A stretch of DNA of 56,358 nucleotides. Origin: Roseomonas aeriglobus. Its GTDB lineage: Bacteria > Pseudomonadota > Alphaproteobacteria > Sphingomonadales > Sphingomonadaceae. A model generated the notes under the pieces. That model saw only the letters and a list, made by a program, of their open reading frames with translations. It made no database searches and was not told the origin of the DNA. The stretch spans positions 1 to 56,358 of the forward strand of contig JAFHKN010000001.1 of assembly GCA_016937575.1 (NCBI GenBank), given 5' to 3'. Made by a program: the position numbers and the translations under genes. Positions 1 to 17,911 of the stretch are shown here, piece after piece. Numbering within the stretch: the first letter of the stretch is position 1; each line of letters starts with the position of its first letter.

Positions 1-283
1 GCGCGCCCTGACGGTCGGGATCGTACCAGATGCGCGGGTGAGGCACGTGCCCTGGCCGGGGCCGTCGAGCATCAGAATCGCAAAGCCGCGGCGCAGGAAG
101 CGGTCGGCCGAGCCGCCGATCTGCAACTCCTTGAACGCGTCCATGCCGCTGACCATGACGAGGCAGGGCAGCTTAGTGCCCTCGGCATAGCCGGGGGGCA
201 GGTGGAACCAGCCGGGCACGGTGGTATCGCCGAACCGCACCTCGACCGCCTCGACCCGGTGGTCGGCGTGCGGAATGTAAGCC
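1..283 (-). pseudogene. Alpha/beta hydrolase, C-terminal part (continues across the circle at 41168)
   Basis: This is the upstream end of the hydrolase C-part described at 41168-42101; on the circle its 3' end lies at 41168. The frame reads into the fragment as AYIPHADHR-VEAVEV at the boundary near 281. A C present in the second copy is missing near position 33, which shifts the frame here only. The missing N-terminal part of the protein lies at 15814-16205. Confidence 0.75.
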
Positions 284-854
284 GCCGCCGTCGCCGCTGC
301 CCGACGGCTTTCCGGCCATCGCGGTCGGGACGGGGCCTCTGTCGTCGCGCGGGACCATGACCGATCTGTTCGTCGCCGTGCTGGCGGCTGCGCGCGAGAC
401 GGTGACGATCACCACGCCCTATTTCGCCCCCGATCCGCCGCTGATCGGCGCAATCGTGGCGGCGGCGCGGCGGGGGGTCGCGCTGCGTATCATCTTCCCC
501 CGCCGCAACGACAACCGCATCGTCGGCGCGATCAGCCGAGCCTATTACCCGGTGCTGGCGAAGGCCGGCGTGCGCATCTTCGAATATCGCGGCGGCCTGC
601 TCCACGCCAAGACGCTGATCGCCGACGGATCGCTCGGGCTGGTCGGTTCCGCCAACATGGACCGCCGCAGCCTCGACCTCAATTTCGAGAACAACATCCT
701 GTTCGATTCAACCGACCTCGCCGAACGGGTCGCCGCGCATCAGCGCGCGTGGCTCGCGGATGCGATCGAGATCGACCACGGCGGCATCGCGGCGCGTTCG
801 CTGCCGCGACGGTTCGTCGATAATCTGCTGACGATGATCGCGGCGGTGTTCTGA
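282..854 (+). pseudogene. Cardiolipin synthase-like phospholipase D, C-terminal half
   Basis: The reading frame encodes the second PLD half: a GTGP-type linker, TPYFAPD, then the HKD motif HAKTLIADG with H83, K85 and D90 counted from the ATG at 357, followed by GSANMDRRS. Full-length cardiolipin synthases have two HKD motifs and roughly 400-480 residues. Here only about 190 codons remain, and the frame is open back to the segment edge at about 282. No N-terminal half is found next to it, so catalysis needing both HKD motifs is unlikely. It marks the torn left end of the inserted segment. Confidence 0.8.
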
Positions 855-881
855 CGTGGCGGGTGCAAGAGAGACCGGTCG

Positions 882-1308
882 ATGGTGAACGTAACGGCGA
901 TCGTCGCGGCGCTGGTGGGATCGCTGGCGGGCGGCGTGGGGCATTACCTGCTCGCCCCGGCGCTCGTCGCGTCAAACGCGGCGCGCGATGATGACCGGCC
1001 TGGTCGCCGAGGTCGCCGTGCTTCGCCATCTGCTCGACCTGCAGTTCGGCAAGGCCGGCACAGCGGACGGCCCCATCGCGATCTTTCCGCTCACCTATCA
1101 CGGCGAACTGGCGGCGGTTTACGACGCGCTGAGCGCGCATCTGGGCAGTCTCGACGAACAGGATGCCGAGCGGATCGTGCGCTTTCACACGCTGTGCAAG
1201 ACCATCATCGGGATGGCGGACACGACAGGTGCGCCGCCCGTCGCGCCAGCACTGATCGCCGAAACCCTGACGCTAGGCGAGGCGATCGTCGCCGACCATC
1301 GCGGTTAG
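882..1308 (+). pseudogene. Small membrane-anchored protein (frame broken by an extra C in this copy)
   Basis: The start MVNVTAIVAALVGSLAGG is the same as in the intact copy at 42700-43125, but a run of four C at 955-958 (three in the other copy) shifts the frame near residue 25. The remaining codons continue in another frame to the same stop. This is most likely a sequencing error rather than a real mutation. See 42700 for the description. Confidence 0.7.
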
Positions 1309-2270
1309 CCGCCGCACAGCCCGGTGAGGACACGCCGCGACGGCGCGAAGAATGTCGTCCCCGTCTTCGGCGTGGAAAAGTCCAGCAGCCGGTCATGGCG
1401 GCCGGGCGGATCGCCGACGAACATCCGCTCGAGCATCTTCTCGATCACCCAAAGGCGTCGCGAATAGCCGATGAAATAGGTGCCGAACTCGCCGCGCGCG
1501 GGATCGCCGTACGGCATGTTGTCGCGCAGGATGTCGTGCTCGGTGCCATCCTCATCGACGATCGTGCTGAGGGTCTTGTGCGATTTCTGCGCGTCCGCGC
1601 CGGCATCGGGGAGCTCGACGTTATCGACCTTGGTCCGGCCGATGATCTCTTCCTGTGCGCTTGCTCCCGCCGCGTTCCAGCCCGTCATGTCGTGCAGGTA
1701 TTTCTGCACCACGACATAGCTGCCGCCGGCGAAATCCGGGTCTTCCTCGCCTACCAGCGCGGCGGCCGGAATGTCGTGACCGGCGGGATTGGCGGTGCCA
1801 TCGACGAAACCGAGCAGGTCGCGTGCGTCGAAATAGCGGAACCCGGACACAGCATCCACGACCCGCACCGCCTCACCGAGCGCCGCCAGCAGCAGCCGTT
1901 CGAACTCGAAACACAGATCGACCCGCTCAGCGCGGATATGGAACAACAGATCGCCCGGCGTGGCGGGAGCCTGATGCTTGGCGCCCACGATCGGTTTGAA
2001 CGGATGCAGCTCCGCCGGCATCTGTGCGGTCTTCGCAAGTCGCCTCCAGATGTCATGGCCCACGCCGACCACGCACGACAACCGGCCGGCCAGATCGCGA
2101 AAGCCCACCGTCTTGATGAGGTCGTCGACCGTCGCCAGCGTCTCGCGCACGTGCGCCAGCGCCCGATCGTCCGGCTCGACCGCCACCACGAGGAACACTG
2201 CCGCCTGCGACAGCGGCGCCTCGACGCTCTGCGCGTCGATCGGCACACGCTCCCAGGTCTGTCCGGTCAT
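1305..2270 (-). CDS. DyP-type heme peroxidase
   Basis: A 321-residue dye-decolourising peroxidase of the compact bacterial (YfeX/DypB-like) kind. The family signature GFVDG is at residues 154-158 with catalytic Asp157. By spacing, the proximal heme ligand is His231, and distal Arg249 and Asn251 sit in ILRDNMPYG. No signal peptide is seen, so it is predicted cytoplasmic unless carried by an encapsulin, and no encapsulin gene is present. These enzymes use H2O2 to oxidise dyes, phenolics or porphyrins. I chose the ATG at 2270; the frame is open 16 codons further upstream. Its stop overlaps the convergent stop of the small membrane protein gene. Confidence 0.9.
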   Translation of the reverse strand: MTGQTWERVPIDAQSVEAPLSQAAVFLVVAVEPDDRALAHVRETLATVDDLIKTVGFRDLAGRLSCVVGVGHDIWRRLAKTAQMPAELHPFKPIVGAKHQAPATPGDLLFHIRAERVDLCFEFERLLLAALGEAVRVVDAVSGFRYFDARDLLGFVDGTANPAGHDIPAAALVGEEDPDFAGGSYVVVQKYLHDMTGWNAAGASAQEEIIGRTKVDNVELPDAGADAQKSHKTLSTIVDEDGTEHDILRDNMPYGDPARGEFGTYFIGYSRRLWVIEKMLERMFVGDPPGRHDRLLDFSTPKTGTTFFAPSRRVLTGLCGG

Positions 2271-2295
2271 CGTTCGTCCATTCGTCGCTTGTGTG

Positions 2296-2484
2296 TCAGG
2301 ACAAGGCGCTGGCGGCATCGTCGATCAGGCCCGTCACCGCGTCGCGCCGAAAGGCCAGCGAAGCATGGCTCGCGTCGAGGCGGATGGTCTTGCGCGCGTC
2401 CATCCGGCCCGACATTTCCGGGTTGGCCCAAGGCGCCGCTTCGCCCCGGAAGCCGTGAGCGGGAACGATTGCCGGTTTCGCCAT
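2296..2484 (-). pseudogene. Alpha/beta hydrolase remnant with internal deletion
   Basis: A 62-codon frame with a good ribosome site (GGGAG seven bases before the ATG). It starts like an EstC-type hydrolase (MAKPAIVPAHGF, including the HG oxyanion motif). It then runs directly into a C-terminal segment, LDASHASLAFRRDAVTGLI, that carries the usual catalytic-His context. The lid and nucleophile regions are missing, so it cannot be an active hydrolase. I infer an internal in-frame deletion of a gene of about 230-260 codons. It lies between the peroxidase and aldehyde dehydrogenase genes on the same strand. Confidence 0.55.
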
Positions 2485-2598
2485 GTGACGTCTCCCGAAT
2501 ATGCCGCGCGTGCGCCATTGCCTTGAGGGCCGGTATCGATCCCGCCATGCGCGTTGGCAAGAGATGCGCCGGCGCGGAAGGGGTCGCAAGCGTTCGAG

Positions 2599-4068
2599 CT
2601 ATTCCCCGAACGGATAGCGCGGTGCCTGCGTTCCTTCGATCGTGATCCACTGGATCTCGGTCAGTTCCTCCAGCCCGACCATCGCACCCGATCGACCGTA
2701 GCCGCTGTCCTTCACGCCGCCGAACGGCGCCTGCGCTTCGTCGTCGAGCGTCACCGCGTTGATGTGCGCCATGCCGGTGTCGAGCCGCTTCGCCATGTCG
2801 AGTGCCAACGTCACGTCGCGGCTGAAGATCGCGCCGGTCAGGCCGTAATCGTTGTCGTTGGCGACGCGCAGCGCCTCCTCCGCGCTATCGACCGTGACGA
2901 TCGAGGCGAACGGACCGAACGATTCCTCGCGGAAGACGCGCATGTCCGCGGTCACGCCGGCCAGCACGGTGGCGGCGAAGCAGCGGCCCTGCACGGTGCC
3001 GCCGGCGAGCAGCCCGGCACCCTTGGCCACCGCGTCGTCGACCAGCCCGGTCAGGTGCCCGACCGACGCATCGTTGATGACGGGGCCGAGGATGGTGTCG
3101 CTCGCGCGCGGGTCGCCGACCTTGAGCTTCTTTGCCGCGGCCGCCAGCCGGCGGGTGAACTCCTCGGCGATGGGACGCTCGACGATGATCCGCTCGGTCG
3201 ACATGCAGCCCTGGCCCGAATTGGCGAACGAGCCGAACACCGCGGCATTGACCGCGCGATCGAGGTCGGCGTCCTTCAGGACGATGAACGGCGCCTTGCC
3301 GCCCAGTTCCAGCACCACCCGCTTCAGATATTTCGCCGCTTTCTCCGCGATGATCTTGCCGACCCTGGTCGATCCCGTGAAGTGGATGCGCCGCACGGCC
3401 GGGTGCGCGATCAGCGCATCGACGATCGCCGGCCCGTCCTTGGGCGCGTTGGTGATGAAATTGACGACGCCGGCCGGGAAGCCCGCATCCTCGAAGCACT
3501 GGGCGACCAGGCCGTGGGTGCGCGGGGTCTGCTCCGACGCCTTGATGACGACGGTGTTGCCGAGGATCAGTGCGGCGGGGACCGAGGCGGCCATCAGGAG
3601 AACCGGCGCGTTCCACGGCACGATGCTGACCACGACGCCGGCCGGCTTGCGGATCGCGACGCTGGTGCGGTTCGTATTTTCCGACGGGATCACCTCGCCG
3701 GTCAGCCCCTCATAGGCGGCGCCGGCGGCGTAGCGCAGCTTCTCCTCCATGATCCGGGCATTGTATTCGCCCCAGGCGGCCGGGCCGCCCATCTCGGCGG
3801 TGACGGCGGCGCTGATCTCGTCCTTGCGCGCTTCCAGCGCGTCGGCGGCGGCGAGCAGATAGGCGCGGCGCCGGCTGGGCGGCAGCGCGGCCCAGCCGGC
3901 GAACGCCTTGTGCGCGGCGTCGGCGGCGCGATCGACATCCGCGACGGTCGCGGCGGCGGCACGGGTCGCCGGTTCGCCCGAATAGGGGTCAAGCGATTCA
4001 TAGGTCGCGCCGTCCGACGCCGGCGTCCATGCGCCAGCGATCAGCAGCTGTTGGTGGTTGATGGCCAT
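2599..4068 (-). CDS. NAD(P)+-dependent aldehyde dehydrogenase (aromatic-aldehyde type)
   Basis: A 489-residue ALDH-superfamily enzyme that oxidises an aldehyde to the acid. Visible features are PWN (Asn153, oxyanion), the VIKASE cofactor loop (Lys176), ELGGK with general-base Glu254, and nucleophile Cys288 in NSGQGCMSTERI. The C-terminal FGGVKDSGYGRSG is typical of vanillin, salicylaldehyde or benzaldehyde dehydrogenases. The start at 4068 follows GGAAACGGTTTC; the frame is open 45 codons upstream but those residues do not look like family sequence. A LysR gene lies 140 bp upstream on the same strand and may regulate it. The exact substrate cannot be assigned. Confidence 0.92.
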   Translation of the reverse strand: MAINHQQLLIAGAWTPASDGATYESLDPYSGEPATRAAAATVADVDRAADAAHKAFAGWAALPPSRRRAYLLAAADALEARKDEISAAVTAEMGGPAAWGEYNARIMEEKLRYAAGAAYEGLTGEVIPSENTNRTSVAIRKPAGVVVSIVPWNAPVLLMAASVPAALILGNTVVIKASEQTPRTHGLVAQCFEDAGFPAGVVNFITNAPKDGPAIVDALIAHPAVRRIHFTGSTRVGKIIAEKAAKYLKRVVLELGGKAPFIVLKDADLDRAVNAAVFGSFANSGQGCMSTERIIVERPIAEEFTRRLAAAAKKLKVGDPRASDTILGPVINDASVGHLTGLVDDAVAKGAGLLAGGTVQGRCFAATVLAGVTADMRVFREESFGPFASIVTVDSAEEALRVANDNDYGLTGAIFSRDVTLALDMAKRLDTGMAHINAVTLDDEAQAPFGGVKDSGYGRSGAMVGLEELTEIQWITIEGTQAPRYPFGE

Positions 4069-4208
4069 GAAACCGTTTCCTTCCGTCTGGCGGACGCCGT
4101 CGATCGAACCGATCGGATCCTGCCGTGACGAAGGAAATACTGTTCCCCGCCTTCGCGATAAACCGGCGGACGAAAAACGCACTGTTATTGATGCCAGAAA
4201 CAATCCGG

Positions 4209-5111
4209 TCAGAGGTAGGGCTGCATCGTGGTTTCGACCCAGACCAGAAACGCGCGCATCTTGGCCGACAGATTGCGGCGGTGGGCCACCACGAACCAGA
4301 CCGGCAACGGTTCCGGCGGATAGGCAGACAGGATTTCGACCATCTCGCCACTGTCGAAGAGCGGCTGCATCGCTGCGAGACCCGCCTGGATCAGCCCGAT
4401 GCCCGCCAGCCCGGCGGCATGATACGTCTGGACATTGTTGACGCTGACGTCACCCGGCAGGCCGAGGGTCGCATAGCCGTCGCCGTCGGGATATTCCCAA
4501 CCGAAGCTCCTCGTCCCCAGAGCTGGTGCATAATGCACGATCCGATGGCCCTGACGGACGAGATCGTCCGGCGTCAGGGGTGTGCCATATCGCGCGAGAT
4601 AGGCGGGACTGGCGGCGTTCACCATGCGCAGCGCGCCGAGCGGCCGTGCGATCAGATTGTCGTCGCCGATCGTCCCGACCCGCAACACGCCATCGAACCC
4701 TTCCTGCACGATATCGACGCGCCGATCGGTGCTGGATATTTCAAGTTCCAGTCCGGGATGGGCGGCGAGCAGCGCCGGCAGCGCCGGGATCAGCATCGCG
4801 CGGGCCAGTTCGGTCGGCACATCGACGCGCAACCGGCCGCGCACCGTGCCGCCGTGCTGCGTGAACATGGCGTCCAGACCTTCCGCCTCGGCGAGCAATT
4901 CCATGGCACGCGCATGGAAAGCGCGACCGTCGTCGGTCAGATGAACCGCACGCGTGGTGCGATGGAGCAACCGGACGCCGACCGTCGCTTCCAGGTCACG
5001 CACCGCGGTGGACACACGCCCCTTGTGCATTCCGAGGCTTTCGGCGGCCCTGGTGAAGCTCGCCATATCGGCGACGCGGGCGAAGATGATGAGCGGGGTC
5101 AGATCGCGCAT
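4209..5111 (-). CDS. LysR-family transcriptional regulator
   Basis: A 300-residue regulator with an N-terminal winged helix-turn-helix (FARVADMASFTRAAESLGMH... RLLHRTTRAVHLTDDG, about residues 8-65) and a LysR substrate-binding domain. It is upstream of the aldehyde dehydrogenase on the same strand rather than divergent, unusual for LysR partners. It is divergent from the LysR gene at 5266 across about 155 bp. The start is the ATG at 5111; the preceding codon is GTG. The inducer is unknown. Confidence 0.92.
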   Translation of the reverse strand: MRDLTPLIIFARVADMASFTRAAESLGMHKGRVSTAVRDLEATVGVRLLHRTTRAVHLTDDGRAFHARAMELLAEAEGLDAMFTQHGGTVRGRLRVDVPTELARAMLIPALPALLAAHPGLELEISSTDRRVDIVQEGFDGVLRVGTIGDDNLIARPLGALRMVNAASPAYLARYGTPLTPDDLVRQGHRIVHYAPALGTRSFGWEYPDGDGYATLGLPGDVSVNNVQTYHAAGLAGIGLIQAGLAAMQPLFDSGEMVEILSAYPPEPLPVWFVVAHRRNLSAKMRAFLVWVETTMQPYL

Positions 5112-5265
5112 CACGCCAGTCTAAGGCAATCCCGCGGCGTGGCCATGTTCCGATCATCCCGGGCACCGGCCTGGGGCGCGGCGTTGCACGGCGACGACGC
5201 TTCGGGGCGCCGGCCACGGTGTCGACCTGTTGCGCGACGAGACGGGGCCGGCGTAGAATCCGTCC

Positions 5266-6195
5266 GTGCTGGATTCCCGTCTGAGATATGCGGTGGCCGT
5301 GGCCCGCGTCGGGTCTTTCTCGGGTGCGTCCAAGGCGGTCGGGGTTACGCAGTCGGCGATCACCAAGAGCGTCGCCGATCTGGAGCAGCAACTCGGCTTC
5401 GCGATCTTCAACCGGACGTCGCGCGGCGTGGCGATGACGCCGGAGGGTCGCGATTTCATCGACCGGGCGGCACGGCTGCTGGCGGATGCCGCAGACCTGT
5501 TCGGCGAGCGCGACCGGGGCGCCGACCCGTTCGCGGGGCAGCTTCGCATCGGCCTTTTCCCCGGATCGATCGACTGGCTGATGACGGGGCCGGCGATCGC
5601 GCTCCTGAAACGACATGCCGGCGTGCGCTTCGAAACCGTCTCCGGTAACAGCGAGCGGGCGGTGCAGTTGCTGTCGCGCGGTGACATCGACGTCGCATTC
5701 GGGCTGGAGGCCGCGTTTTCCGGCTGGCCGCAGTTCAAGTGCGATCGCATCGCGACGATCGAGATCCTTCCGTTCGTGCGCAGGGAGCACCCGATCCTGA
5801 CAAGGCATTCGATCGACAAGCGGGCGCTGACGCAGTTCGATTTCGTCGTGCCGTCGTCGTCCGAACCCTATACGCCGATCATCCAGCAACTCTACGAGCA
5901 GGACGGTCAGCGCCCGGAGGATCGGGTGCACATGACCGACTATTTCCCGCTGGCGCGGCAGATCGTCGCCGCGACCGACACCGTCGGGCTGGTGGCCAAA
6001 GCCTTCACCGCCGGCCGCTGGTTCCGCGATGGGTTCGTCGCGCTGCCCGATACCGGACTGCTGGAGCCGCTGGTGCTGGCCTATGCCGCCCGCGCGCGCT
6101 GGCAGATCAAGCCGGCAGCGCGGGATCTGATCGCCCGCGTCCGCGAGGCCTGGACGCCGGCGCCGCGGAGCGAGGCGCCGGCGACGAACGGCTAG
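5266..6195 (+). CDS. LysR-family transcriptional regulator (GTG start)
   Basis: A 309-residue LysR protein starting with GTG. The HTH is at about residues 5-62 (VGSFSGASKAVGVTQSAITKSVADLEQQLG), followed by a substrate-binding domain. It is divergent from the other LysR gene and convergent with the TonB receptor gene; the two stop codons overlap at 6192-6195. Its position between the aldehyde dehydrogenase and CoA-ester gene blocks makes it a candidate regulator of either, or of the receptor. Confidence 0.92.
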   Translation: MLDSRLRYAVAVARVGSFSGASKAVGVTQSAITKSVADLEQQLGFAIFNRTSRGVAMTPEGRDFIDRAARLLADAADLFGERDRGADPFAGQLRIGLFPGSIDWLMTGPAIALLKRHAGVRFETVSGNSERAVQLLSRGDIDVAFGLEAAFSGWPQFKCDRIATIEILPFVRREHPILTRHSIDKRALTQFDFVVPSSSEPYTPIIQQLYEQDGQRPEDRVHMTDYFPLARQIVAATDTVGLVAKAFTAGRWFRDGFVALPDTGLLEPLVLAYAARARWQIKPAARDLIARVREAWTPAPRSEAPATNG

Positions 6196-8450
6196 AAGTT
6201 CAGCGCGAACTCGCCGCCGATGACCCTCCCCTTGTTAAGCGGCGACAGGCTGGCGCCCGGTCCGCCGAACGCGACGGTGAGCGGCGTATCGCCACCATAA
6301 GTCACTTCGTTCAGCAAGTTGCGGGCGTAGGCCGAGAGGCGCCATTTGCGGCTCGCGGCGTTATAGGTGAGGCTCGCATCGAGCATGTCCGCAGCAGGCA
6401 GAAAGCCGACATTGTTGTCGGTGAACCGGGCGGTGTCGCGATGGGTGAAATCCACGCGTGCGGTCGCGCTCCCCAGCGCGCCCAGCGCCTGATCGTAGGT
6501 CAGCCCGGCGCCATAAGTCCAGGGTGACAGCCGCGGCAGCTTCAGGTCGCGATCGATGCCGTTGATGACGCCGTCGCCGCTGATGTCGAAGCGGACGTTG
6601 CGATACTGGCCGTGAACATAGCCGAGCTGCCCGGACAGGACGAGGTTGGGCAGGATGAAGAACTGACCCTCCGCCTCCACGCCCTGGATCGTCGCGTCGG
6701 CGGTGTTGCGGATCACCTGGCTGATGCCCAGCGGGCCGGGCAGGTTGATCTCGCGCTGGAGGTCCTTCATCCGGTTATGAAAGGCTGCCAGGTTCAGCCG
6801 GCTGCGTCCGAACTGCTTCTTCGTCCCGATCTCGAAACTGTCCTGGACCTCCTGATCGAAGGGGCCGGGCGGCACGCCAAGATCGGTGTTGCGCAGGTTA
6901 TAGCCACCGCTGCGGAAGCCACGCGTATACAAGCCATAGACCTGCGTCTGGTCATCGGGCTTCCATTGCAGCCCGACCTTCGGTGTGAAGCTCTTCCAGT
7001 CGTTGCTGTCGACGAAGTTCGTCGCGCAGCGCAGCGTGTCGAGGTCGCAGCCGTCGGCACGCAGGGTCGAGATGCGCACGGCCTTGCGCTCCCAGCTATA
7101 GCGACCACCGAGATTGAACGTCAGCGTGTCCGCGAAATGCCAGTCGGCGGACGCAAAGATGCCCCATGTCGTCTGGTCCTGAGTCCCGCCCCCCGAAACG
7201 ATGCGGCTGTTGCCGAGAAGGTTGCGCCGCTCGGCATAGGCCAGATCCTGTGTAAAATAATACAGGCCGGTCGTCACTTCCACAGAGCCGAACTTACCGG
7301 CATAGCGCAGCTCGTTACTGAGCTGTTTCTGAGCGATGTTGAAGAAACCGTTGAAGAATGACTGCGGCGTGCCATCGATGTCGGTCGCGGTTCTCGAGCG
7401 GAACTGGCGGTAGCCCGAGATGTTCGTGATGACACCGTCGCCAAAGCCGACATCGACATTGGTTTCGACGATCGCCTGGTTCCAGATCGCCTTGTAGAAG
7501 CCCGGAAAATCAATCGACAGCGCGAACGTGTCACGCGGGAGTACCGCGTGACTCTGGACCGGCGCCCCGTCTCCATCGACGTCGCCGTGTTCGTAGCGGA
7601 TGTCCATGCGGAAATCGTCCCCGCCTTTGACGGAGAGCGCGGGGCGGACAATGATGTCGCGCGACCTGCCAAAACTCCGACCGTCGAAGCGATTACGGAA
7701 CCAGCCGTCGTCGTCGCTGTAATAGACCGCCAGCTTGGCCGCCAGCACGTCGTCGATCAGCGGCCCCGTCACCATACCGCTGACGGTCTTCTTCAGGCCG
7801 GTCTCGACCGAAGCCTTGGCGTTGGCGCGGAACGTGAAGCTCGGACGTGTCGTACGCATCACCACCGCGCCGCCCGTCACGTTGCGGCCGAACAGCAGCC
7901 CCTGCGGTCCGCGCAACACCTCCACCCCCTCGAGGTCGAAGTTATCGAGCACGACGCCCGCGTTGATGCCCAGATAGATGCCGTCGACGAAGACGCCGAC
8001 GGTGGGATCAATAGACGGGATGGTGCTGTTGATGCCGAGACCGCGAATGGTGAAATTGGCATATCCCGGCGCGGTCCCAACGCCGTCGAGCTGCACGTTG
8101 GGCACGTCGTAGCTGAGGCTCTGAAGGTTCTGGACGAACTTCGCGTCGAGCTGAGCCTCGCCGAACGCCGTCACCGCGACCGGCACGTTCTGCACGCTCT
8201 CCCCATAACCCTTCTTGGTGGCGGTCACGACGATGTCTTCGGACAGTGCTTCGGTGGCGCTCGATGCAGGCGCTGCGGTTCCCGCCGGTGCAGGCGTCCG
8301 GGCCGCCGGTGGCGCGGGAGCATCGGCCCCGGTCTGCGCAGGCGCTTGCCCCTGTGGTCCGGCTTCGGCGGCAGTCGGTGCCGGCGCCTCTTGCGCATGT
8401 GCCGGCCCTGCCGAAACCAAGGCGGCAGACGTCAGCAGCCAGTATTTCAT
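6192..8450 (-). CDS. TonB-dependent outer-membrane receptor
   Basis: A 752-residue receptor. Residues 1-19 form a signal peptide ending AHA before Gln20. A Pro/Ala-rich stretch follows (20-70), then the TonB box DIVVTA at 72-77. The plug domain (about 80-200, with NVTGGAVVM) precedes the 22-strand barrel, which ends in a C-terminal Phe (GEFALNF). The start at 8450 places the signal peptide correctly; the 22 codons upstream do not. It lies 114 bp downstream of the beta-oxidation gene block on the same strand, so it probably imports the compound degraded by that block (inference). This architecture is common in sphingomonads, which use such receptors for many organic substrates, not only iron. 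Confidence 0.93.
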   Translation of the reverse strand: MKYWLLTSAALVSAGPAHAQEAPAPTAAEAGPQGQAPAQTGADAPAPPAARTPAPAGTAAPASSATEALSEDIVVTATKKGYGESVQNVPVAVTAFGEAQLDAKFVQNLQSLSYDVPNVQLDGVGTAPGYANFTIRGLGINSTIPSIDPTVGVFVDGIYLGINAGVVLDNFDLEGVEVLRGPQGLLFGRNVTGGAVVMRTTRPSFTFRANAKASVETGLKKTVSGMVTGPLIDDVLAAKLAVYYSDDDGWFRNRFDGRSFGRSRDIIVRPALSVKGGDDFRMDIRYEHGDVDGDGAPVQSHAVLPRDTFALSIDFPGFYKAIWNQAIVETNVDVGFGDGVITNISGYRQFRSRTATDIDGTPQSFFNGFFNIAQKQLSNELRYAGKFGSVEVTTGLYYFTQDLAYAERRNLLGNSRIVSGGGTQDQTTWGIFASADWHFADTLTFNLGGRYSWERKAVRISTLRADGCDLDTLRCATNFVDSNDWKSFTPKVGLQWKPDDQTQVYGLYTRGFRSGGYNLRNTDLGVPPGPFDQEVQDSFEIGTKKQFGRSRLNLAAFHNRMKDLQREINLPGPLGISQVIRNTADATIQGVEAEGQFFILPNLVLSGQLGYVHGQYRNVRFDISGDGVINGIDRDLKLPRLSPWTYGAGLTYDQALGALGSATARVDFTHRDTARFTDNNVGFLPAADMLDASLTYNAASRKWRLSAYARNLLNEVTYGGDTPLTVAFGGPGASLSPLNKGRVIGGEFALNF

Positions 8451-8480
8451 AGCCCCTCTCCATATTGTCTGTATTTTTGT

Positions 8481-8502: not shown

Positions 8503-8564
8503 TGCGCGCCGTCCAATTCAATGCGCGGGCGATCTATTCCCTCGGCTCATGTCCTGGATCGTCG

Positions 8565-9461: not shown

Positions 9462-9474
9462 GATCGTGCTCCCG

Positions 9475-10620
9475 TCAGCGGAACGCGCCGACGCCGGTCA
9501 GCGCGCGCGAGATGATGAGCTTCTGGATCTCGGTCGTGCCGTCGGGGATCGGGCAGATGATCGCCTCCCGCACCAGCCGCTCGACGATGAACTCGCGCGT
9601 CACGCCGTTGCCGCCGTGGATCTGGAGCGCGTCGCGGGTCACGCCGATCGCCATTTCGGTCGCATACCATTTGGCCATGGCGCATTCGGTTTCCGCACGG
9701 ACGCCGGCATCGACCAGCGAGATCGCGCGGTGCGTCAGCAGCCGCGCGGCGTCGATCTGCGTCGCCATGGTGGCGAGCTTCTCGGCGATGAGCTGATGCC
9801 CGGCGATCTTGCGGCCATGCTGCGTGCGCTCCTTCGCGTAGGCGATCGCCTCGTCCAGCGCGCGACGGGCGATGCCGATGCTCCACATCGCCATGTGGCA
9901 GCGCGCGATCTCGAACACCTTCAGCGTGTTGCGCAGCCCGTCGCCGGGCTGGCCCAGCATGTTGCCGACCGGCACGCGGCAGTCGGTGAGGAAGATCTGC
10001 GCGGTCGACTGGCCGTTCAGCGCCATCTTCTCGATGTCGCGCACCTCGTACGGGCTTTCGGCGCGGTCGATCAGGATATGGCTGATCTCGTTTTCGCCGG
10101 TGCGGCAGGTGCAGACGAGCACGTCCGAATAGGCGCCGTTGGTGATCCACGTCTTCTCGCCGTTGATGACCCAATGGTCGCCGTCGCGCACCGCGCGCGT
10201 CTTCACGGCCGCCACGTCCGAGCCGACATCGGGTTCGGAAATGCCCATCGAGACGAACAGCTCGCCCGCGATCAGGCCGGGCAGGTAGCGCCGCTGGAGT
10301 TCGGGCGAGGCGCTGCGCCGGATCAGCTCGGCACCGACCGCGTTGATGAAGCCCGGAATGGCGACGTCGAGCGAGGAATAGACGATTTCCTCGAAGATCA
10401 TGAGATGCGTCAGCCACCCCATGTCGAGGCCGCCCCATTCCTCGTCGTGCGGCGCCGCGATGTGGCCGAACCGGGTCAGCTCGCCGGTCCATCGCCGCAT
10501 CAGGTCGCGCGGGATGAAGCCGGGGCCATGCGCGCGGATCTCGGGTTCGAGCTTGTCGTCGAGGAAGCGGCGGACGCTCTCGACGGCCATCCGCTGTTCG
10601 TCACCGGGCAGGAAATCCAT
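9475..10620 (-). CDS. Acyl-CoA dehydrogenase
   Basis: A 381-residue flavoprotein that introduces the alpha,beta double bond into an acyl-CoA. The fold signatures are present: [12 protein letters not shown] (124-135), [10 protein letters not shown] (157-166) and the C-terminal [12 protein letters not shown]. In the medium-chain enzyme the catalytic base is the Glu of YEGT; the matching position here is Asp360 (PDGTTEIQ). The alternative Glu site of isovaleryl-CoA dehydrogenase is Ala239 (FEIAR). The weaker or longer-reach base could suit an unusual bulky substrate (inference). It is 12 bp downstream of the thiolase gene, same operon. Confidence 0.92.
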
Positions 10621-10632
10621 GCTCTTCGCTCC

Positions 10633-11871
10633 CTATCGGCCGAGGACGGTGACCGCGACCACGGCCTCCTCCACCCCCAGCACCCCGCCGCCGTTCTGCG
10701 CGACCGCGATCCGGGCGCCGTCCACCTGCCGCGCGCCCGCCTCGCCGCGCAATTGCGCGACCAGTTCGTAGATCTGGCCGAGGCCGGTCGCGCCGATCGG
10801 GTGGCCCTTGCATTCGAGGCCACCCGACGGGTTCACCGGAATGCGGCCGCCGATGACGGTATCGCCGCGCTCCGCCGCGACGCCGCCCTCGCCGGGTGGC
10901 ACGAGGCCCAGCGCCTCGATCTCGATGATCTCGCCCATCGCGGTCGCGTCGTGCACTTCCGCGACATCGACATCCGCCGGATCGACCCCCGCCGCCGCAT
11001 AGGCGCGCGTGGCGGCGAGCCGGGTGACGTGCCGGTCGTAATCATACGGGCTGCGTTCCGAGCTCGTCTGCAACACCGAGGCGAGGATGCGGATCGCCCG
11101 CCCGCCGGAAGCGGTCAGCTTGCGCAGCCCGGCGGCGTTGCAGATCACCGCGGCCGCCGCCCCGTCGCTGATCGGCGAGCACATCGGCAGCGTCAGCGGA
11201 AAGACGATCGGCGGCGCCGCCAGCACCGCCTCCACGGTGTAGGGTATCCGGTACTGCGCCAGCGGGTTGCTGACCGAATGCATGTGGTTCTTCGCGGAGA
11301 CCGCCGCGATCTGCGCCTGCGTCGAGCCGTAGGTCTTCATGTGCGCGCGCGACATCGCGGCATAGATGTCCATGAAGACGCTGTAGGGCTGCGTCGATAC
11401 CGATCCCTCCGGCACGGCGACGCCTTCTCCCATCGCCAGCAGGATATCGCGGTTGCGCGCCGTCTCATGCACGTCCCACGCGCCGTCGAACGCGCTGAAC
11501 ATCAGCGCCTTGTCGGGCGAGCACATCTTTTCCGCGCCCAGCGCCAGCACGACATCGACCGCGCCCGAGCGGACATAGGCACTCGCCATGTGCACCGCGG
11601 TCGAGGCGGTGGCGCAGGCGTTCTCGACGTTGACGACGGGCACGCCCTGGATGCCGACCGCGCGCGCCACCAGCTCGCCGCGGATCATGTCCTGCCCTTC
11701 CATATGGCCCTGGACGCAATTGCCGAAGAACACCGCGTCGATATCCGCCGGCCCGCAGCCGGCATCGGCGAACGCCTGCGCCACGGCATCGCCCGACAGA
11801 CCTTTCAGGCTGCGATCGAGCTGCTTGCCGAACTGCGTCATGCCGACGCCGGCGATGAAGATGTCGCTCAT
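10633..11871 (-). CDS. SCP2/SCPx-type thiolase (3-ketoacyl-CoA thiolase)
   Basis: A 412-residue thiolase-fold protein of the sterol-carrier-protein-X/lipid-transfer branch. The nucleophile is Cys86 in VENACATAS. His357 is in CKGHPIGATG, and the SCP2-branch signatures EVHDAT (305-310) and AQNGGGVLG (391-399) are present. This family cleaves 3-ketoacyl-CoA esters with bulky or methyl-branched chains. No DUF35 partner protein is encoded nearby, unlike aldolase-type Ltp pairs, so ordinary thiolysis is more likely. Its start codon overlaps the hydratase stop (ATGA), showing translational coupling. Confidence 0.9.
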   Translation of the reverse strand: MSDIFIAGVGMTQFGKQLDRSLKGLSGDAVAQAFADAGCGPADIDAVFFGNCVQGHMEGQDMIRGELVARAVGIQGVPVVNVENACATASTAVHMASAYVRSGAVDVVLALGAEKMCSPDKALMFSAFDGAWDVHETARNRDILLAMGEGVAVPEGSVSTQPYSVFMDIYAAMSRAHMKTYGSTQAQIAAVSAKNHMHSVSNPLAQYRIPYTVEAVLAAPPIVFPLTLPMCSPISDGAAAAVICNAAGLRKLTASGGRAIRILASVLQTSSERSPYDYDRHVTRLAATRAYAAAGVDPADVDVAEVHDATAMGEIIEIEALGLVPPGEGGVAAERGDTVIGGRIPVNPSGGLECKGHPIGATGLGQIYELVAQLRGEAGARQVDGARIAVAQNGGGVLGVEEAVVAVTVLGR

Positions 11872-12707
11872 TGTCCCGTGAACTCCGGTTGGCGCTTTTC
11901 AGCGAAGGCCGTCAGCCCCTCCTGCAGGTCGTGCGAGGTGGCGTAGTCGGCGACGATCTCCAGTTCGCGGCGCAGGCCTTCCTCCAGCGAACAGCCGTCG
12001 GCGATCGCGGCCAGTTCCTTCATGCGTGCCAGCCCGAGCGAGCTCTTGGTGGCGAGCGTCTCGACCAAGGATTGCGCCGTCTCGACCAGCGCGTCGCCCG
12101 GCACGATCCGGCTCACCAGCCCCGCGCGCTCCATGTCCGCCGCGGGCAAGAACTCCCCCGTCATCATCAACCAGGCCGCGCGCGCCGGGCCGATCTTGCG
12201 CGGCAGGCGGATCGAGCCGCCGCCGCCGGGCAGCAGTCCGTAGTTCGCGTGAGCATCGCCAAATCGCGCGCTGTCGGCGGCGACCACGAGATCGCAGCAC
12301 AGGACGAGTTCCAGTCCGCCGGCCAGCGCCAGCCCGTTGACCAATGCGATCGTCGGCAGGGGCGAGGCTTCGATCCGCGTGAAGACACGGCCCAGCTCGG
12401 CGAGAAAGTCGCCCAGCGGCGCGGCGATCGATCCGCCATGCGCATGGAGCGCCGCAAGATCGGCACCCGCGCAGAATGCGCGTCCTGCCCCGGTGACCAC
12501 TACCGATCGCACCGCCGGGTCGGCCTCGGCGGCCGTGATCGCCGCCTCCAGCTCATGCGCCATTTCGAGCGTCAGGCTGTTCAGCGCCGCCGGGCGGTTG
12601 AGCCACACCCAGCAGGCGGGGCCGCGCTTTTCGACGACAATGGTCTCGAACGGGATGGCATGTTCCATGGGGGTGACGGGGGATGCGGCGGGACGGTCGG
12701 CGGTCAT
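11868..12707 (-). CDS. Enoyl-CoA hydratase/isomerase family protein
   Basis: A 279-residue crotonase-fold protein. The oxyanion-hole segments are FCAGADLAAL (78-87) and LALAGGLELVLCCDL (126-140), with the first catalytic Glu at 133. The position of the second catalytic Glu of hydratases (in FGxPE) is His153 here (FGDAHANYG), so the reaction may be isomerisation or another crotonase chemistry rather than plain hydration. The start at 12707 overlaps the synthetase stop (ATGA); an alternative ATG lies 13 codons downstream. It belongs to the same minus-strand operon. Confidence 0.88.
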   Translation of the reverse strand: MTADRPAASPVTPMEHAIPFETIVVEKRGPACWVWLNRPAALNSLTLEMAHELEAAITAAEADPAVRSVVVTGAGRAFCAGADLAALHAHGGSIAAPLGDFLAELGRVFTRIEASPLPTIALVNGLALAGGLELVLCCDLVVAADSARFGDAHANYGLLPGGGGSIRLPRKIGPARAAWLMMTGEFLPAADMERAGLVSRIVPGDALVETAQSLVETLATKSSLGLARMKELAAIADGCSLEEGLRRELEIVADYATSHDLQEGLTAFAEKRQPEFTGQ

Positions 12708-14251
12708 GCGCCCGAAATCCGGCTGGCATGGCCGGCCCAATAGGGCTCGCGCAGCTTCGACCTCAGCACCTTGCCGACGTTGCTCAGCGGCAGAGGATCG
12801 GTGGTGAAGACGACCTGCCCGGGCTTCTTGAACGACCCCAGCCGCCGGCTGACGAGATCGGTGATCTCCTGTTCGGAGATCACCGTGCCCGGCGCGACGA
12901 CGACCCGCGCGAGCGGCGTCTCCCCCCATTTCTCGTGCGGGATGCCGAACACGGCGGCGGCGATCACCAGCGGGTGATCGGCGATCACGTTCTCGATCTC
13001 GGCGGGGTAGATATTGTACCCGCCCGACACGATCAGGTCGTTGGCGCGATCGAGCAGATAGAGGAAGCCGTTGGCGTCGATCCGGCCGACGTCGCCGGTC
13101 TTCACCCAGCCGTCGACCATGCGCTGCGCGGTCTCCTCGGGATCGTTCCAGAAGCCCTGCATCTGGCCGTTCTCGAACCTTGCGACGATCTCTCCCGGCT
13201 CGTCGGGTCCGAGCACGCGCCCGTCCGCATCGCGGATCTCCAGATCGACGAACGGCATCGCCCGACCCACCGACTGAAGCGGTGTCGACCCTTCGGTCCG
13301 GCCGAACCATTCTCTCGGCCCGAGTGACGTGACGGGCAATATCTCGGTCTGTCCGTACGCCGAGTGTAGCACCTCGTCGCCGAAGATCTCGCAAGACTTG
13401 CGTAGCGTCGCCTCCGAGATCGGGGCTGAGGCGCTGAGCAGGCACTTCAGCTTCGGAAAGGCATGCCCATGCGGGTTGCCGTGATGGACGACGGCGTTGA
13501 GCATCGTCGGGGCGACGAATGCGTAACCGACCTCCTCCCGCTGTAGAATATCGAGGAAGCCTTCAGGGTCGAACGCCTCCATCATGACGTTGCGCCCGCC
13601 GATCGCCCAATAGGGCGAGAACATGAAGCCCGAGGCGTGCGACAGCGGGCCTACGTGCAATACCGTCGCGCCCGGTTCCGGTCGTGGGCCGACCGCCTGG
13701 AATCCGCCGCAGATCGTCATCCAGGAACGATGGGTATAGGCTACGCCCTTCGGCGCGCCAGTGGTGCCGCCGGTGTGACGGATGACAAGGATGTCGTCGG
13801 GCGCGATCGCCGGATCGGGATCGATGTCCGATGCCTGCGCGAGCCAGTTTTCGTAGCGCGCATCACGCACGATCAGGCGGTCGAGGCCCGGCACCTCCGA
13901 GTCCAGCCCGGCGATCTCAGGCAACAGCGCCTCGTCGACCAGCGCCACGCGGCATCCGGTGTGACGCATCATGTGATCGTGGGACTCGCGCCGGTTTCGC
14001 GCATAAAGCGGCACACGAACGAAGTTGCCGATCGCCGCGGCAAGAAAGATATCGACCGCCTCGACCGAATTCTTCTCGAGCGTCGCGACCCTGTCGCCGG
14101 GCTGGAGGCCGGCATCGGCCAGCGCGTTCGCCAGCCGCACCCCGCGCGACCACGCTTCGGCGAAGGTGAAGCGACGATCGCCGTGGACCAGCGCCTCGCG
14201 GTTCGCGAAATAGGCGGCCGCGCGTCGAAGCTGGGTGCGCAGCTCCATCAT
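12704..14251 (-). CDS. Acyl-CoA synthetase (AMP-forming)
   Basis: A 515-residue ANL-superfamily ligase that activates a carboxylic acid as its CoA thioester with ATP. The phosphate-binding loop HTGGTTGAPKG is at 159-169, followed by the YGQTE motif, the WVKTGDVG hinge region, SGGYNIYPAEIE, and the C-terminal catalytic Lys in NVGKVLR. It is the first gene of the five-gene block. The start, ATGATG at 14251, follows GGGAG. It is intact only in this copy; the other copy (54521-56065) carries three single-base deletions. It is divergent from the racemase gene. Confidence 0.92.
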   Translation of the reverse strand: MMELRTQLRRAAAYFANREALVHGDRRFTFAEAWSRGVRLANALADAGLQPGDRVATLEKNSVEAVDIFLAAAIGNFVRVPLYARNRRESHDHMMRHTGCRVALVDEALLPEIAGLDSEVPGLDRLIVRDARYENWLAQASDIDPDPAIAPDDILVIRHTGGTTGAPKGVAYTHRSWMTICGGFQAVGPRPEPGATVLHVGPLSHASGFMFSPYWAIGGRNVMMEAFDPEGFLDILQREEVGYAFVAPTMLNAVVHHGNPHGHAFPKLKCLLSASAPISEATLRKSCEIFGDEVLHSAYGQTEILPVTSLGPREWFGRTEGSTPLQSVGRAMPFVDLEIRDADGRVLGPDEPGEIVARFENGQMQGFWNDPEETAQRMVDGWVKTGDVGRIDANGFLYLLDRANDLIVSGGYNIYPAEIENVIADHPLVIAAAVFGIPHEKWGETPLARVVVAPGTVISEQEITDLVSRRLGSFKKPGQVVFTTDPLPLSNVGKVLRSKLREPYWAGHASRISGA

Positions 14252-14488
14252 CCATGCTCCCGAGCGGCAGCGGCGCGGGGTTGCACACGGCAGATCGGGC
14301 AGGTCAGGATATGCGCCATCGGGCCTCTCCACGCACGCCGTAACCGGCATTTTATTGAGCGTAGATCGGAAAGCGCGGCCGACTTGTCCAATGCATTTCG
14401 GTCGCGCGATATTCCTGTTCTTCATGTTCGGCCGACACGGAATCGTGCCACGATCCGGCCTGGAGCCTATCAAGGGAGAGGATGGCGC
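14252..14488. promoter_or_regulatory. Divergent intergenic region between synthetase and racemase genes
   Basis: This 237-bp gap between two outward-facing starts must hold both promoters. I see an AT-richer patch (TTTTATTGAGCG near 14351) and a GGGAGAGG ribosome site just before the racemase gene, but no convincing operator palindrome. No gene is visible in it. Confidence 0.5.
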
Positions 14489-15607
14489 ATGAGGGATCAC
14501 GGGCCGCTCGCGGGCGTGCGGATCGTCGAGATTGCCGGGATCGGTCCCGCGCCGTTCTGCGGCATGCTGCTTGCCGATCTTGGTGCCGACGTCGTCGTCG
14601 TGGGCCGGCCCGCGCCCGATCCCGACGCACTCGATCTCGGCAGCGCGTCGATTCTCGACCGCGGCAAGCGGTTCATCCAGCTCGACCTGAAACAGCCCGA
14701 CGGCGTGGCAGCGGTCCTCGACCTCATCGAGCATGGCGACGCCCTGATCGAGGGGATGCGGCCCGGGGTGATGGAACGGCTGGGCCTCGGTCCCGACGTC
14801 TGCCTCGCCCGCAATCCGGCGCTGGTGTTCGGGCGGATGACGGGCTGGGGACAGGACGGTCCGCTGGCGCAGGCCGCCGGGCACGACATCAACTATATCG
14901 CGCTGTCAGGCGCGCTCTGGTACGCCGGCCAGCCCGGCACGCCGCCGGTGGCCCCTCCCAGCCTGGTCGGCGATCTCGGTGGCGGCGCGCTCTATCTCGC
15001 GGTCGGCCTGCTCGCCGCGATCCTGAGCGCGCGTTCGACCGGCCGGGGACAGGTGGTCGATGCCGCGATCGTCGACGGCAGCGCCCATCTGATGAACCTG
15101 CTGCTCAGCCTGAAGGCGGCGGGCCATTTCGTCAGCGAGCGGGGCCGCAGCATCCTCGACGGGCCGCACTGGTACGCGACCTATCGCTGCGCGGACGACC
15201 GGTTCGTCTCGGTCGGCTCGCTCGAACCGAAATTCCATGCGCTGCTCCGTGAGAAGCTGGGACTCGCCGACGATGCCGATTTCGCCGATGGTTACGATCC
15301 GGCGCGCTGGCCCGATCTCAGGCGGCGTTTCGAGGCGCTGTTCCGGCAACGCACCCGTGATGAATGGTCGGCGCTGCTGGAAGGAACCGACGCCTGCTTC
15401 GCGCCCGTGCTCGACCCGGACGAGGCCGCATCTCATGCCCATATGGCCGGTCGGCAGATCTACCGGAGCATCGACGGCGTGCTCCAGGCAGTGCCCGCGC
15501 CACGGTTTTCGGTGACGACATCTGCCATGTCAAGCACACGTTCCGTCAGCGAGTCCCGGCCGGGTGCAATCATACGTGAATGGCGGGATCTGCGGAGCCG
15601 ACCCTGA
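14489..15607 (+). CDS. Alpha-methylacyl-CoA racemase (family III CoA-transferase fold)
   Basis: A 372-residue CaiB/BaiF-fold protein with the racemase subfamily signature. GRMTGWGQ is followed by GHDINYIALSG with His132. Asp162 is in GDLGGG and Glu246 in SLEPKFH. These match the His/Asp/Glu trio known from mycobacterial MCR. Such enzymes equilibrate (2R)- and (2S)-2-methylacyl-CoA esters so that a stereospecific acyl-CoA dehydrogenase can act. The start at 14489 follows GGGAGAGG. It is divergent from the beta-oxidation operon and explains that operon's likely substrate class, a 2-methyl-branched acyl chain. A simple CoA-transferase is the less likely alternative. Confidence 0.87.
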   Translation: MRDHGPLAGVRIVEIAGIGPAPFCGMLLADLGADVVVVGRPAPDPDALDLGSASILDRGKRFIQLDLKQPDGVAAVLDLIEHGDALIEGMRPGVMERLGLGPDVCLARNPALVFGRMTGWGQDGPLAQAAGHDINYIALSGALWYAGQPGTPPVAPPSLVGDLGGGALYLAVGLLAAILSARSTGRGQVVDAAIVDGSAHLMNLLLSLKAAGHFVSERGRSILDGPHWYATYRCADDRFVSVGSLEPKFHALLREKLGLADDADFADGYDPARWPDLRRRFEALFRQRTRDEWSALLEGTDACFAPVLDPDEAASHAHMAGRQIYRSIDGVLQAVPAPRFSVTTSAMSSTRSVSESRPGAIIREWRDLRSRP

Positions 15608-15813
15608 CGGCTTCGAGGGCGGCCGGCTGCTGGCTGCCTATGGTCCCGCGTTGCGGAAAGCGCGCTTGGGGGGGGGAGCGAGGCGCGATTCTCGCGTGTC
15701 CGGAACCTCGTCAGGTTCTGCGATGAACGGGACACGGCGGTGGCGCGCCCGATGTGGCGGGCGCGGCGTCGGGGCCATGCGCGCCGATCCCGCCCGAGCG
15801 TTCGGTGGGCGCG
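15608..15813. other. Gene-free right end of the inserted segment
   Basis: No credible gene lies between the racemase stop and the hydrolase fragment. The minus-strand frame of the hydrolase stays open here to 15711, but its residues after CYQAA lose all resemblance to the hydrolase. I see no inverted terminal repeat and no transposase remnant. Confidence 0.6.
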
Positions 15814-16205
15814 GCCTGGTAGCACTCGGTCTTCTTGCGCTCGAGCGCGTAGTTGAGGTCGGTGTTCTCGAAGATCGGCCATTGCGCCGCGCCGTACATC
15901 ACCGAAGCGGCGAAGAAGCCGTCGCTGGCGGTGACGTGGTGCCCTTGGCTGTCGGCGGCCATCGCCTGAAGCTCGTAGCGCCGGGCGAGGCGCGCGAACT
16001 CGCGGGTCATGTCGTCATAGCGCTTGATCTGGCCGGCGAGCCCCATCACGCCGCCGGCCCAATCGGAACTCATCGGCGCGGCGTAGTAGTGGAGGCGCGT
16101 CTGGTCGAACTCGGGACCGGCCAGCTCTACGATCTTGTCGATCAGCCAGCGCTGATCCTTGAAGCGTTGGACGCGCGCCTGGGTCGTGAACGGAACGGTG
16201 GGCAT
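15814..16205 (-). pseudogene. Alpha/beta hydrolase, N-terminal part (split gene)
   Basis: About 130 codons starting MPTVPFTTQARVQRFKDQRW and ending DLNYALERKKTECYQA. This is the helical N-terminal cap region that precedes the catalytic domain in hydrolases of the 2,6-dihydroxypseudooxynicotine-hydrolase type. The catalytic domain (GLSFGS nucleophile) is not here but at 41168-42101, on the same strand of the circle and 15.5 kb away. A ribosome site (CGGAG) sits seven bases before the ATG. The FAD monooxygenase stop is 29 bp upstream, so the intact gene was the second gene of that operon. The ORF runs on to 15711 with unrelated residues. Confidence 0.75.
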
Positions 16206-16234
16206 GGTGGAACTCCGTTGGCGGTCGGAAGAGG

Positions 16235-17857: not shown

Positions 17858-17889
17858 GATCAGCCCTTTCGAAGACGGCTGACCATATA

Positions 17890-17903: not shown

Positions 17904-17911
17904 CAGTAAAG

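What the first reader, a model, noticed from the sequence alone, without database searches (positions are those of the whole stretch)
281..16205. A 15.5-kb catabolic block sits inside a split alpha/beta hydrolase gene
The N-terminal cap (15814-16205) and the catalytic domain (1-283 joined to 41168-41817) of one hydrolase lie on the same strand at the two edges of the block. Joining them at the shared GCC gives ...KKTECYQ-A-YIPHADHRVEAVEV in frame, about 440 codons. The operon order TetR, FAD monooxygenase, hydrolase, small protein is then restored. A whole degradation module thus seems to have arrived in one event, destroying another degradation operon.
Basis: partly seen in the sequence, partly recalled or inferred. 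Interest (0 to 1): 0.78.

Follow-up and report, generated by a model that had tools for sequence, protein, structure and literature searches.

The report
Catabolic gene block splitting a hydrolase
On a plasmid of a Sphingomonas-type bacterium, a 15.5-kb stretch of degradation genes sits inside another degradation gene and cuts it in two, and the same cut gene with its insert is found almost letter for letter in a distantly related species in different surroundings.

Summary
Confirmed: the two hydrolase pieces belong to one gene. Joined, they give 440 residues that align end to end with an intact 440-residue relative (86% identity, identical residues at the join). It is not an assembly fault: both junctions occur letter for letter in a contig of Sphingomonas beigongshangi REN5. 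The window is a circular plasmid of about 41.8 kb written out with 14.5 kb of end redundancy. The insert (284-15813) holds a cls gene truncated right at one edge, a DyP peroxidase, an aromatic aldehyde dehydrogenase and a 10.3-kb CoA-ligase/beta-oxidation cluster that is collinear (80%) in two other Sphingomonas genomes. Its edges bear no transposase, recombinase or terminal inverted repeat; illegitimate recombination is the likeliest entry. The cargo's ends coincide with the variable slot of a resolvase-bearing transposon family that carries mercury, arsenic or efflux genes elsewhere. The restored operon order and 'one event' are plausible but were not corroborated by relatives. The kind of event is ordinary; the nested setting is instructive.

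The parts
15814..16205 (-). N-terminal helical (cap) part of the split hydrolase, residues 1-131
   Evidence: helices 6-135 in the model of the intact relative P0003
41168..42097 (-). C-terminal catalytic alpha/beta part of the split hydrolase (second write-out; on the circle 41168-41817 then 1-280). The residues taken as the catalytic triad (S250, D334 or D335, H364 in P0003 numbering; assignment inferred) are all in this piece
281..283 (.). GCC triplet at the C-side junction, shared with the N side
15814..15816 (.). GCC triplet at the N-side junction; up to 3 bp of overlap with the C side (target duplication, microhomology or chance)
284..15813 (.). Inserted block, 15,530 bp
284..854 (+). 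3' part of a phospholipase D / cardiolipin synthase-like gene (cls), cut at the block edge
   Evidence: PLDc_2 in 357-854; homologous DNA in G266 and G032 starts at 284 and 280
882..1307 (+). Small ORF without a Pfam match; intact (141 aa) in the second write-out 42700-43125, broken in copy 1 by an assembly indel near 958
1305..2318 (-). DyP-type peroxidase
2599..4203 (-). Aldehyde dehydrogenase, closest solved relatives salicylaldehyde and vanillin dehydrogenases
4209..5114 (-). LysR regulator 1
5266..6195 (+). LysR regulator 2
6192..8516 (-). TonB-dependent receptor
8565..9461 (-). Short-chain dehydrogenase, closest solved relative a (3R)-hydroxyacyl-CoA dehydrogenase (2et6)
9475..10620 (-). 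Acyl-CoA dehydrogenase
10633..11871 (-). Thiolase, SCP2-thiolase-like
11868..12640 (-). Enoyl-CoA hydratase/isomerase (start approximate)
   Evidence: residues 278-525 of the ORF
12704..14263 (-). Acyl-CoA synthetase, closest solved relatives 8weu and 8wev (feruloyl-CoA synthetase); start approximate
14470..15607 (+). Class III (CaiB-type) CoA-transferase; start approximate
   Evidence: residues 291-632 of the ORF
16235..17857 (-). FAD-dependent aromatic-ring monooxygenase of the interrupted operon
17912..18532 (-). TetR regulator
40713..41126 (-). Small protein (137 aa) downstream of the hydrolase; no Pfam or NCBIfam match
40646..41817 (.). Left part of the 19.8-kb cargo shared with REN5 (continues at 1-18636)
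1..18636 (.). Main part of the 19.8-kb cargo shared with REN5; identity stops at 18636
18757..19323 (+). Serine resolvase (tnpR) with res-like sequence upstream
19333..20759 (-). DDE transposase (DUF772 type, 474 aa in relatives), frameshifted near 19602 here
20823..20845 (.). Right terminal inverted repeat (23 bp, perfect partner at 40554-40576)
40554..40576 (.). Left terminal inverted repeat of the transposon
40562..40652 (.). Conserved left end of the transposon family, up to the cargo slot

Best explanation
A 440-codon gene for an alpha/beta hydrolase of the 2,6-dihydroxypseudooxynicotine-hydrolase/AntI/Ayg1 kind, on the same strand as and next to a FAD monooxygenase and a TetR gene, was interrupted at codon 131 by 15.53 kb of foreign sphingomonad DNA. 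That DNA bears a CoA-dependent beta-oxidation cluster with its own regulators and TonB receptor, an aromatic aldehyde dehydrogenase, a DyP peroxidase and a truncated cls gene. Shown: the split, the exact join, both junctions in a second strain, the gene content, and the collinear relatives of the 10.3-kb core. Inferred: the block entered by illegitimate recombination (perhaps integration of a circular or linear fragment at a 3-bp match), because neither edge bears a mobile-element end and cls is cut at the edge; the hydrolase is inactivated, since cap and catalytic parts are on separate ORFs and the only start codon left for the catalytic part lies downstream of the join. The damaged operon and the block then spread as one 19.8-kb cargo between res-like sites of resolvase-bearing elements. 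The cargo boundaries are shown; resolvase-driven exchange is inferred.
For: Joined protein 440 aa against intact 440-aa P0003, 86% identity over 100%, same residues at the join; N 117/131 and C 260/309 identical to P0003. Pieces contiguous in L003-L006. Both junctions (120 bp each) found exactly in REN5 and the block found whole in the two genomes G000 and G076, G076 being REN5. cls homology begins at 284 in G266 and 280 in G032. Core 5263-15545 collinear at 80% in G197, and 5263-15053 up to the contig end in G268. No inverted repeat above chance in the terminal 80 bp (longest 7; shuffles average 7.6). Cargo limits sharp at 40646 and 18636, at the edges of sequence conserved in 5 of 5 plasmids aligned on the left and 2 of 2 plasmids plus a second REN5 locus on the right.
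Against: No uninterrupted copy of the cargo operon was found, so the pre-insertion state is known only for the gene, not for the operon. The 3-bp overlap is too short to tell transposition from microhomology or chance. The block as a whole is known only from the two carriers, so stepwise growth inside the gene is not excluded. The transposase in this window is frameshifted and no target-site duplication was seen around the transposon.
Confidence: 0.86

Rival explanations
1. Assembly chimera: the split is produced by mis-joining and does not exist in the cell.
For: The contig carries 14.5 kb of redundant ends with 7 one-base indels, so it is unpolished.
Against: Both junctions occur exactly in the separately named REN5 contig NZ_JADHDT010000013.1, whose surroundings outside 40646-18636 differ.
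Confidence: 0.02
2. The two pieces come from two different hydrolase genes brought near each other by rearrangement.
For: None found.
Against: Both pieces are about equally close to the same intact relatives, the join restores length and sequence exactly, and of the 4 matches of the C piece in the host genome only the two write-outs in this contig exceed 33% identity.
Confidence: 0.02
3. The block entered by a regular transposition event (3-bp target duplication GGC) whose transposase or ends are unrecognised or were lost.
For: The join loses no base, and the overlap can be read as a clean 3-bp duplication.
Against: No terminal inverted repeat above chance; no transposase or recombinase among the block ORFs scanned; cls is truncated at the edge.
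Confidence: 0.15
4. The block grew in several steps inside the hydrolase: a first small insertion, later enlarged by further catabolic genes.
For: In 3 of 3 12-kb neighbourhoods fetched around cls or DyP relatives (L052-L054) the rest of the block is missing, apart from one 86-bp match in L054; the core cluster occurs without cls, DyP and aldehyde dehydrogenase in G197 and G268.
Against: Only one pair of edges, no internal mobile-element remnant recognised, and G+C of 0.66-0.68 across the gene-bearing pieces. In one search only 1-2 candidates per genome were scored, so donor arrangements may have been missed.
Confidence: 0.3
5. The block is a programmed or excisable intervening element that can restore the gene.
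For: Excision at the shared GCC would restore the frame exactly.
Against: No recombinase gene found in the block, only 3 bp shared at the ends, and only the interrupted form was seen in the two carriers.
Confidence: 0.02

Closest known systems
2,6-dihydroxypseudooxynicotine hydrolase (2jbw), AntI (6hxa), Ayg1/Wdyg1 (8qd1, 8qd7)
   Same: Sequence and fold of the intact relative P0003: 2jbw is the best solved relative by sequence (E 1e-16) and by fold (TM 0.85 to the target); helical N part plus alpha/beta part.
   Different: About 22% identity, so the substrate is not implied; here the gene is split between the two parts.
Feruloyl-CoA synthetase and aryl-side-chain beta-oxidation clusters
   Same: Ligase closest to feruloyl-CoA synthetase structures, SCP2-type thiolase, hydroxyacyl-CoA dehydrogenase-like SDR, hydratase, acyl-CoA dehydrogenase, aromatic aldehyde dehydrogenase.
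   Different: No enzyme passes an NCBIfam equivalog cut-off among those shown for the nine block and operon proteins scanned; the substrate is unknown.
Unit transposons with a resolvase (Tn3-like in layout)
   Same: Terminal inverted repeats, serine resolvase with res-like site, transposase, variable passenger genes.
   Different: The transposase is a 474-aa DUF772/DDE_Tnp_1 protein, not a Tn3-family transposase; the cargo edge lies at the res-like site.
Mosaic catabolic plasmids of sphingomonads
   Same: Repeated swapping of degradation modules between plasmids; the chromate/metal segment here is 99.8-99.9% identical to a Sphingomonas naphthae plasmid.
   Different: Here the cargo itself contains an earlier insertion, shared by two carriers.

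Membership tests
DHPON hydrolase / AntI / Ayg1 type alpha/beta hydrolases | Sequence relation of the joined protein's relative to solved members | tested here: met
   2jbw E 1e-16, 8qd7 3e-13, 6hxa 3e-11
DHPON hydrolase / AntI / Ayg1 type alpha/beta hydrolases | Helical N-terminal part followed by an alpha/beta fold | tested here: met
   model of P0003, pLDDT 85.2, pTM 0.88, helices 6-135 then strands from 139; Foldseek top 2jbw
DHPON hydrolase / AntI / Ayg1 type alpha/beta hydrolases | C-C bond cleavage activity | not testable with these tools
   needs assay; the split gene is probably inactive
CoA-dependent aryl/acyl side-chain beta-oxidation cluster | Ligase, acyl-CoA dehydrogenase, hydratase, hydroxyacyl dehydrogenase and thiolase in one cluster | tested here: met
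   collinear in G197
CoA-dependent aryl/acyl side-chain beta-oxidation cluster | Hydroxycinnamate as substrate | not testable with these tools
   suggested only by ligase and aldehyde dehydrogenase relatives
Resolvase-bearing unit transposon (element around the cargo) | Terminal inverted repeats | tested here: met
   23-bp perfect pair 20823-20845 / 40576-40554; a forward/reverse pair also in NZ_CP139980
Resolvase-bearing unit transposon (element around the cargo) | Resolvase and intact transposase | tested here: inconclusive
   resolvase complete; transposase frameshifted near 19602, either real or an assembly error
Resolvase-bearing unit transposon (element around the cargo) | Target-site duplication | tested here: not met
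   flanks of the two repeats show no direct repeat (sequences printed, compared by eye)
Tn3 family | Tn3-type transposase (about 1000 aa) | tested here: not met
   transposase is DUF772 / DDE_Tnp_1
Composite transposon (for the 15.5-kb block) | IS copies or terminal repeats at both block edges | tested here: not met

The most novel reading that the evidence does not exclude
Sphingomonad plasmids share a family of resolvase/DDE-transposase elements with a fixed left end of about 90 bp and a fixed res-tnpR-tnpA right end, between which whole passenger loads (mercury, arsenic, RND efflux, catabolic) are swapped by resolvase acting on the two res-like edges, a cassette-exchange use of a resolvase. 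The 19.8-kb split-operon load, moved nearly unchanged between two distant Sphingomonas species onto two different resolvase platforms, would be one exchange caught in the act. A relative of the beta-oxidation core (G197) also lies about 3 kb from a cousin of the same tnpR/tnpA pair.
Probability: 0.35. Interest if true: 0.58.

Novelty: new member of a known kind. Interest (0 to 1): 0.42.

Why it matters
It is a clear, checkable case of one degradation pathway being gained at the cost of another, and it gives a relative order of events: block enters hydrolase first, then the damaged operon plus block spread between species. If the cargo-slot reading is right, it also points to a way in which soil sphingomonads exchange entire catabolic or metal-resistance loads at defined sites, which would be directly testable.

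Tried and rejected
Assembly artefact: rejected, both junctions are in REN5. Real 14.5-kb tandem duplication: rejected as the simplest reading, because at each of the 7 differing sites REN5 agrees with one write-out, which fits errors towards the two contig ends. Block as a transposon or composite: no ends, no transposase found. Host chromosome as donor of the block: apart from the two write-outs, the best matches in the host genome are 67-70% identical and at most about 1.1 kb long for the longest (40 of 622 candidates scored). Search of 72,556 plasmids for the N-side junction region 15500-16240: no match; for the hydrolase protein: 128 records, all under 60% identity. Search for intact close hydrolases: at E<=1e-70, 2 of 295 genus genomes, both the split form (5 candidates scored per genome); at E<=1e-90, only the own genome among 397 family and 396 order genomes, which overlap with the genus set (4 scored per genome). 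So no named relative gave the operon context. L003's upstream neighbour is not the monooxygenase.

One search counted 26 of 295 genus genomes with a match to the block at E<=1e-100, with only 1-2 candidates scored per genome: these counts are lower bounds. Literature: listings only were seen, no paper was opened. 'Sphingomonas beigongshangi' gave 0 papers; resolvase + res site + Sphingomonas + transposon + cargo gave 0; pseudooxynicotine hydrolase with two other terms gave 0; sphingomonad + plasmid + resolvase + transposon + catabolic genes gave 4; res sites/serine resolvase/passenger genes/cassette exchange gave 2, neither of which held the term 'cassette exchange'; phenylpropanoid cluster terms gave 3; pseudooxynicotine hydrolase alone gave 1. 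This library lacks most subscription journals, so no claim that the element family is undescribed is made.
Full report
What the window is. The contig is 56,358 bp, the whole of G000:C1. Its first 14,544 bp recur at 41818-56358 with 7 single-base indels and no mismatch. REN5, an independent relative, agrees with copy 2 at two of the sites and with copy 1 at five. The contig is therefore a circle of about 41,817 bp written past its start; REN5 also runs straight through the 41817/1 join.

The split gene. The N piece (15814-16205) and C piece (41168-41817 plus 1-280) lie on the minus strand. The C-side sequence reads ...GGC TTA C and the N-side ...CCA GGC C on the minus strand, so a join at GGC loses nothing. 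The overlap is 3 bp if the lost codon was GCT, and 0 if it was GCC. The joined 440-residue protein matches P0003 (440 aa) at 86% over its full length; P0003 reads ECYQAYIPHADH at the same place. P0003, P0004, P0006 and P0010 share 103-117 of 131 N residues and 245-264 of 309 C residues; P0063 is one residue shorter, so its C count is out of register and is dropped. Four genome loci (L003 from a Sphingomonas MAG, L004-L006 from Streptomyces and Kitasatospora) have both parts contiguous in one frame.

What the hydrolase was. The best solved relatives by sequence are 2,6-dihydroxypseudooxynicotine hydrolase (2jbw, E 1e-16), Ayg1/Wdyg1 and AntI. A model of P0003 from 34 sequences (mean pLDDT 85.2, pTM 0.88) is helical to residue 135 and alpha/beta from 139; Foldseek ranks 2jbw first. 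The break at residue 130/131 thus falls in the last helix of the N part. Invariant S250, D334/D335 and H364 fit a catalytic triad, all in the C piece; the assignment is mine. The C piece keeps one start codon in frame, a GTG at 42058 beyond the join. Loss of function is inferred. The titles of the AntI and Ayg1 entries say polyketide shortening; a C-C hydrolase role for the lost gene is an inference from these relatives.

The block. It holds the 3' part of a cls-like gene whose homologues start to match at 284 (G266) and 280 (G032), that is, at the edge; a small ORF; DyP peroxidase; an aldehyde dehydrogenase nearest to salicylaldehyde and vanillin dehydrogenases; two LysR genes; a TonB receptor; an SDR nearest to (3R)-hydroxyacyl-CoA dehydrogenase; an acyl-CoA dehydrogenase; an SCP2-type thiolase; a hydratase; a CoA ligase nearest to feruloyl-CoA synthetase structures; and a CaiB-type CoA-transferase. 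About 200 bp of apparently non-coding DNA follow to the other edge. The part 5263-15545 is collinear at 80% in G197, and 5263-15053 in G268, where the contig ends. In three 12-kb neighbourhoods fetched around cls or DyP relatives (L052-L054), only that one gene matched, apart from an 86-bp match in L054. The most likely role is CoA-dependent side-chain shortening of an aromatic (hydroxycinnamate-like) acid; the substrate is inferred.

How it got there. The terminal 80 bp of the block share no inverted repeat beyond chance (longest 7, shuffles average 7.6), and no transposase or recombinase was seen in the block ORFs scanned. With cls cut at the edge, capture of a fragment by illegitimate recombination is the simplest reading; transposition with a 3-bp duplication is not excluded.

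The operon. TetR, monooxygenase and hydrolase N piece lie head to tail with gaps of 54 and 29 bp; the C piece and small protein with 41 bp. The order is thus plausible for one operon, but none of L003-L006 has homologues of the other three at E<=1e-4, and no intact close relative with context was found in 295 genus, 397 family and 396 order genomes (overlapping samples, 4-5 candidates scored per genome).

The wider unit. REN5 (Sphingomonas beigongshangi, contig NZ_JADHDT010000013.1, 45.8 kb) is identical to the window from 40646 over the origin to 18636, about 19.8 kb, but for three substitutions (6104, 6725, 13990), once the two copy-1 assembly indels are set aside. Outside these limits the two differ: the DNA left of 40646 is unrelated over the 1.5 kb available, and beyond 18636 the resolvase gene is a diverged relative. 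One 8-kb stretch of the host chromosome matches REN5 at 71-77% in its three longest matches. So a load containing the already split gene moved recently between distant species.

The load's limits. Window 40562-40652 is a conserved left end found in 14 plasmid records. In the 5 of these aligned (L058-L062) conservation runs to GGGAT at 40651 and then stops, followed by genes for mercury (L058), NmrA/LysR (L059), efflux and two-component regulation (L060, L061) or arsenic (L062). On the right, sequence from 18619 on (TTCCCG...GGAACCTCCAACGGGA, resolvase) is shared with L058, L059 and a second REN5 locus. A resolvase-transposase pair also follows the passenger genes in L058, L059, L067, L068 and L069. 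The 23-bp perfect inverted repeats 40554-40576 and 20823-20845 bound the whole. Hence the cargo shared with REN5 fills exactly the variable slot of this transposon family. Against a simple picture: the transposase is frameshifted here, no target duplication was seen, REN5's left flank is not this left end, and in L067 the listed left-end match lies in the opposite orientation. Exchange by resolvase is an inference. G197, which carries a relative of the core cluster, has a tnpA (62%) and tnpR (49%) of the same convergent layout about 3 kb from it.

Verdict. The event is of a known kind. 'One event' and 'restored operon' remain open. The extra finding is that the damaged operon and its insert travel as one load in a defined slot.

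Noticed in passing
1-14544 and 41818-56358: End redundancy of a circular contig with 7 one-base indels; coordinates in both copies describe the same DNA.
   Followed up: yes
33680-40580: Chromate/metal (chrB, chrA, dmeF) segment 99.8-99.9% identical to a Sphingomonas naphthae plasmid (NZ_CP117412), ending within the left inverted repeat region of the transposon.
   Followed up: partly
19333-20759: Transposase reading frame broken near 19602 compared with the 474-aa relative in NZ_CP139980; the REN5 copy aligns over its full length.
   Followed up: partly
31322-33351: Cytosine methylase next to an Eco29kI-type restriction endonuclease: a restriction-modification pair on the plasmid.
   Followed up: no
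34098-34258 and 35145-35305: 161-bp inverted repeats (85% identical) about 0.9 kb apart, with repeated TGAGAC-type motifs read by eye, perhaps ends of a small transposon-like unit.
   Followed up: no
L049:1908-4090 and 7018-17202: The G197 relative of the beta-oxidation cluster lies about 3 kb from a tnpA/tnpR pair related to those of this plasmid.
   Followed up: partly
20951-21568: A second serine resolvase gene beside the transposon's right end; 18911-18979 and 21150-21218 within the two resolvase genes are 83% identical.
   Followed up: no
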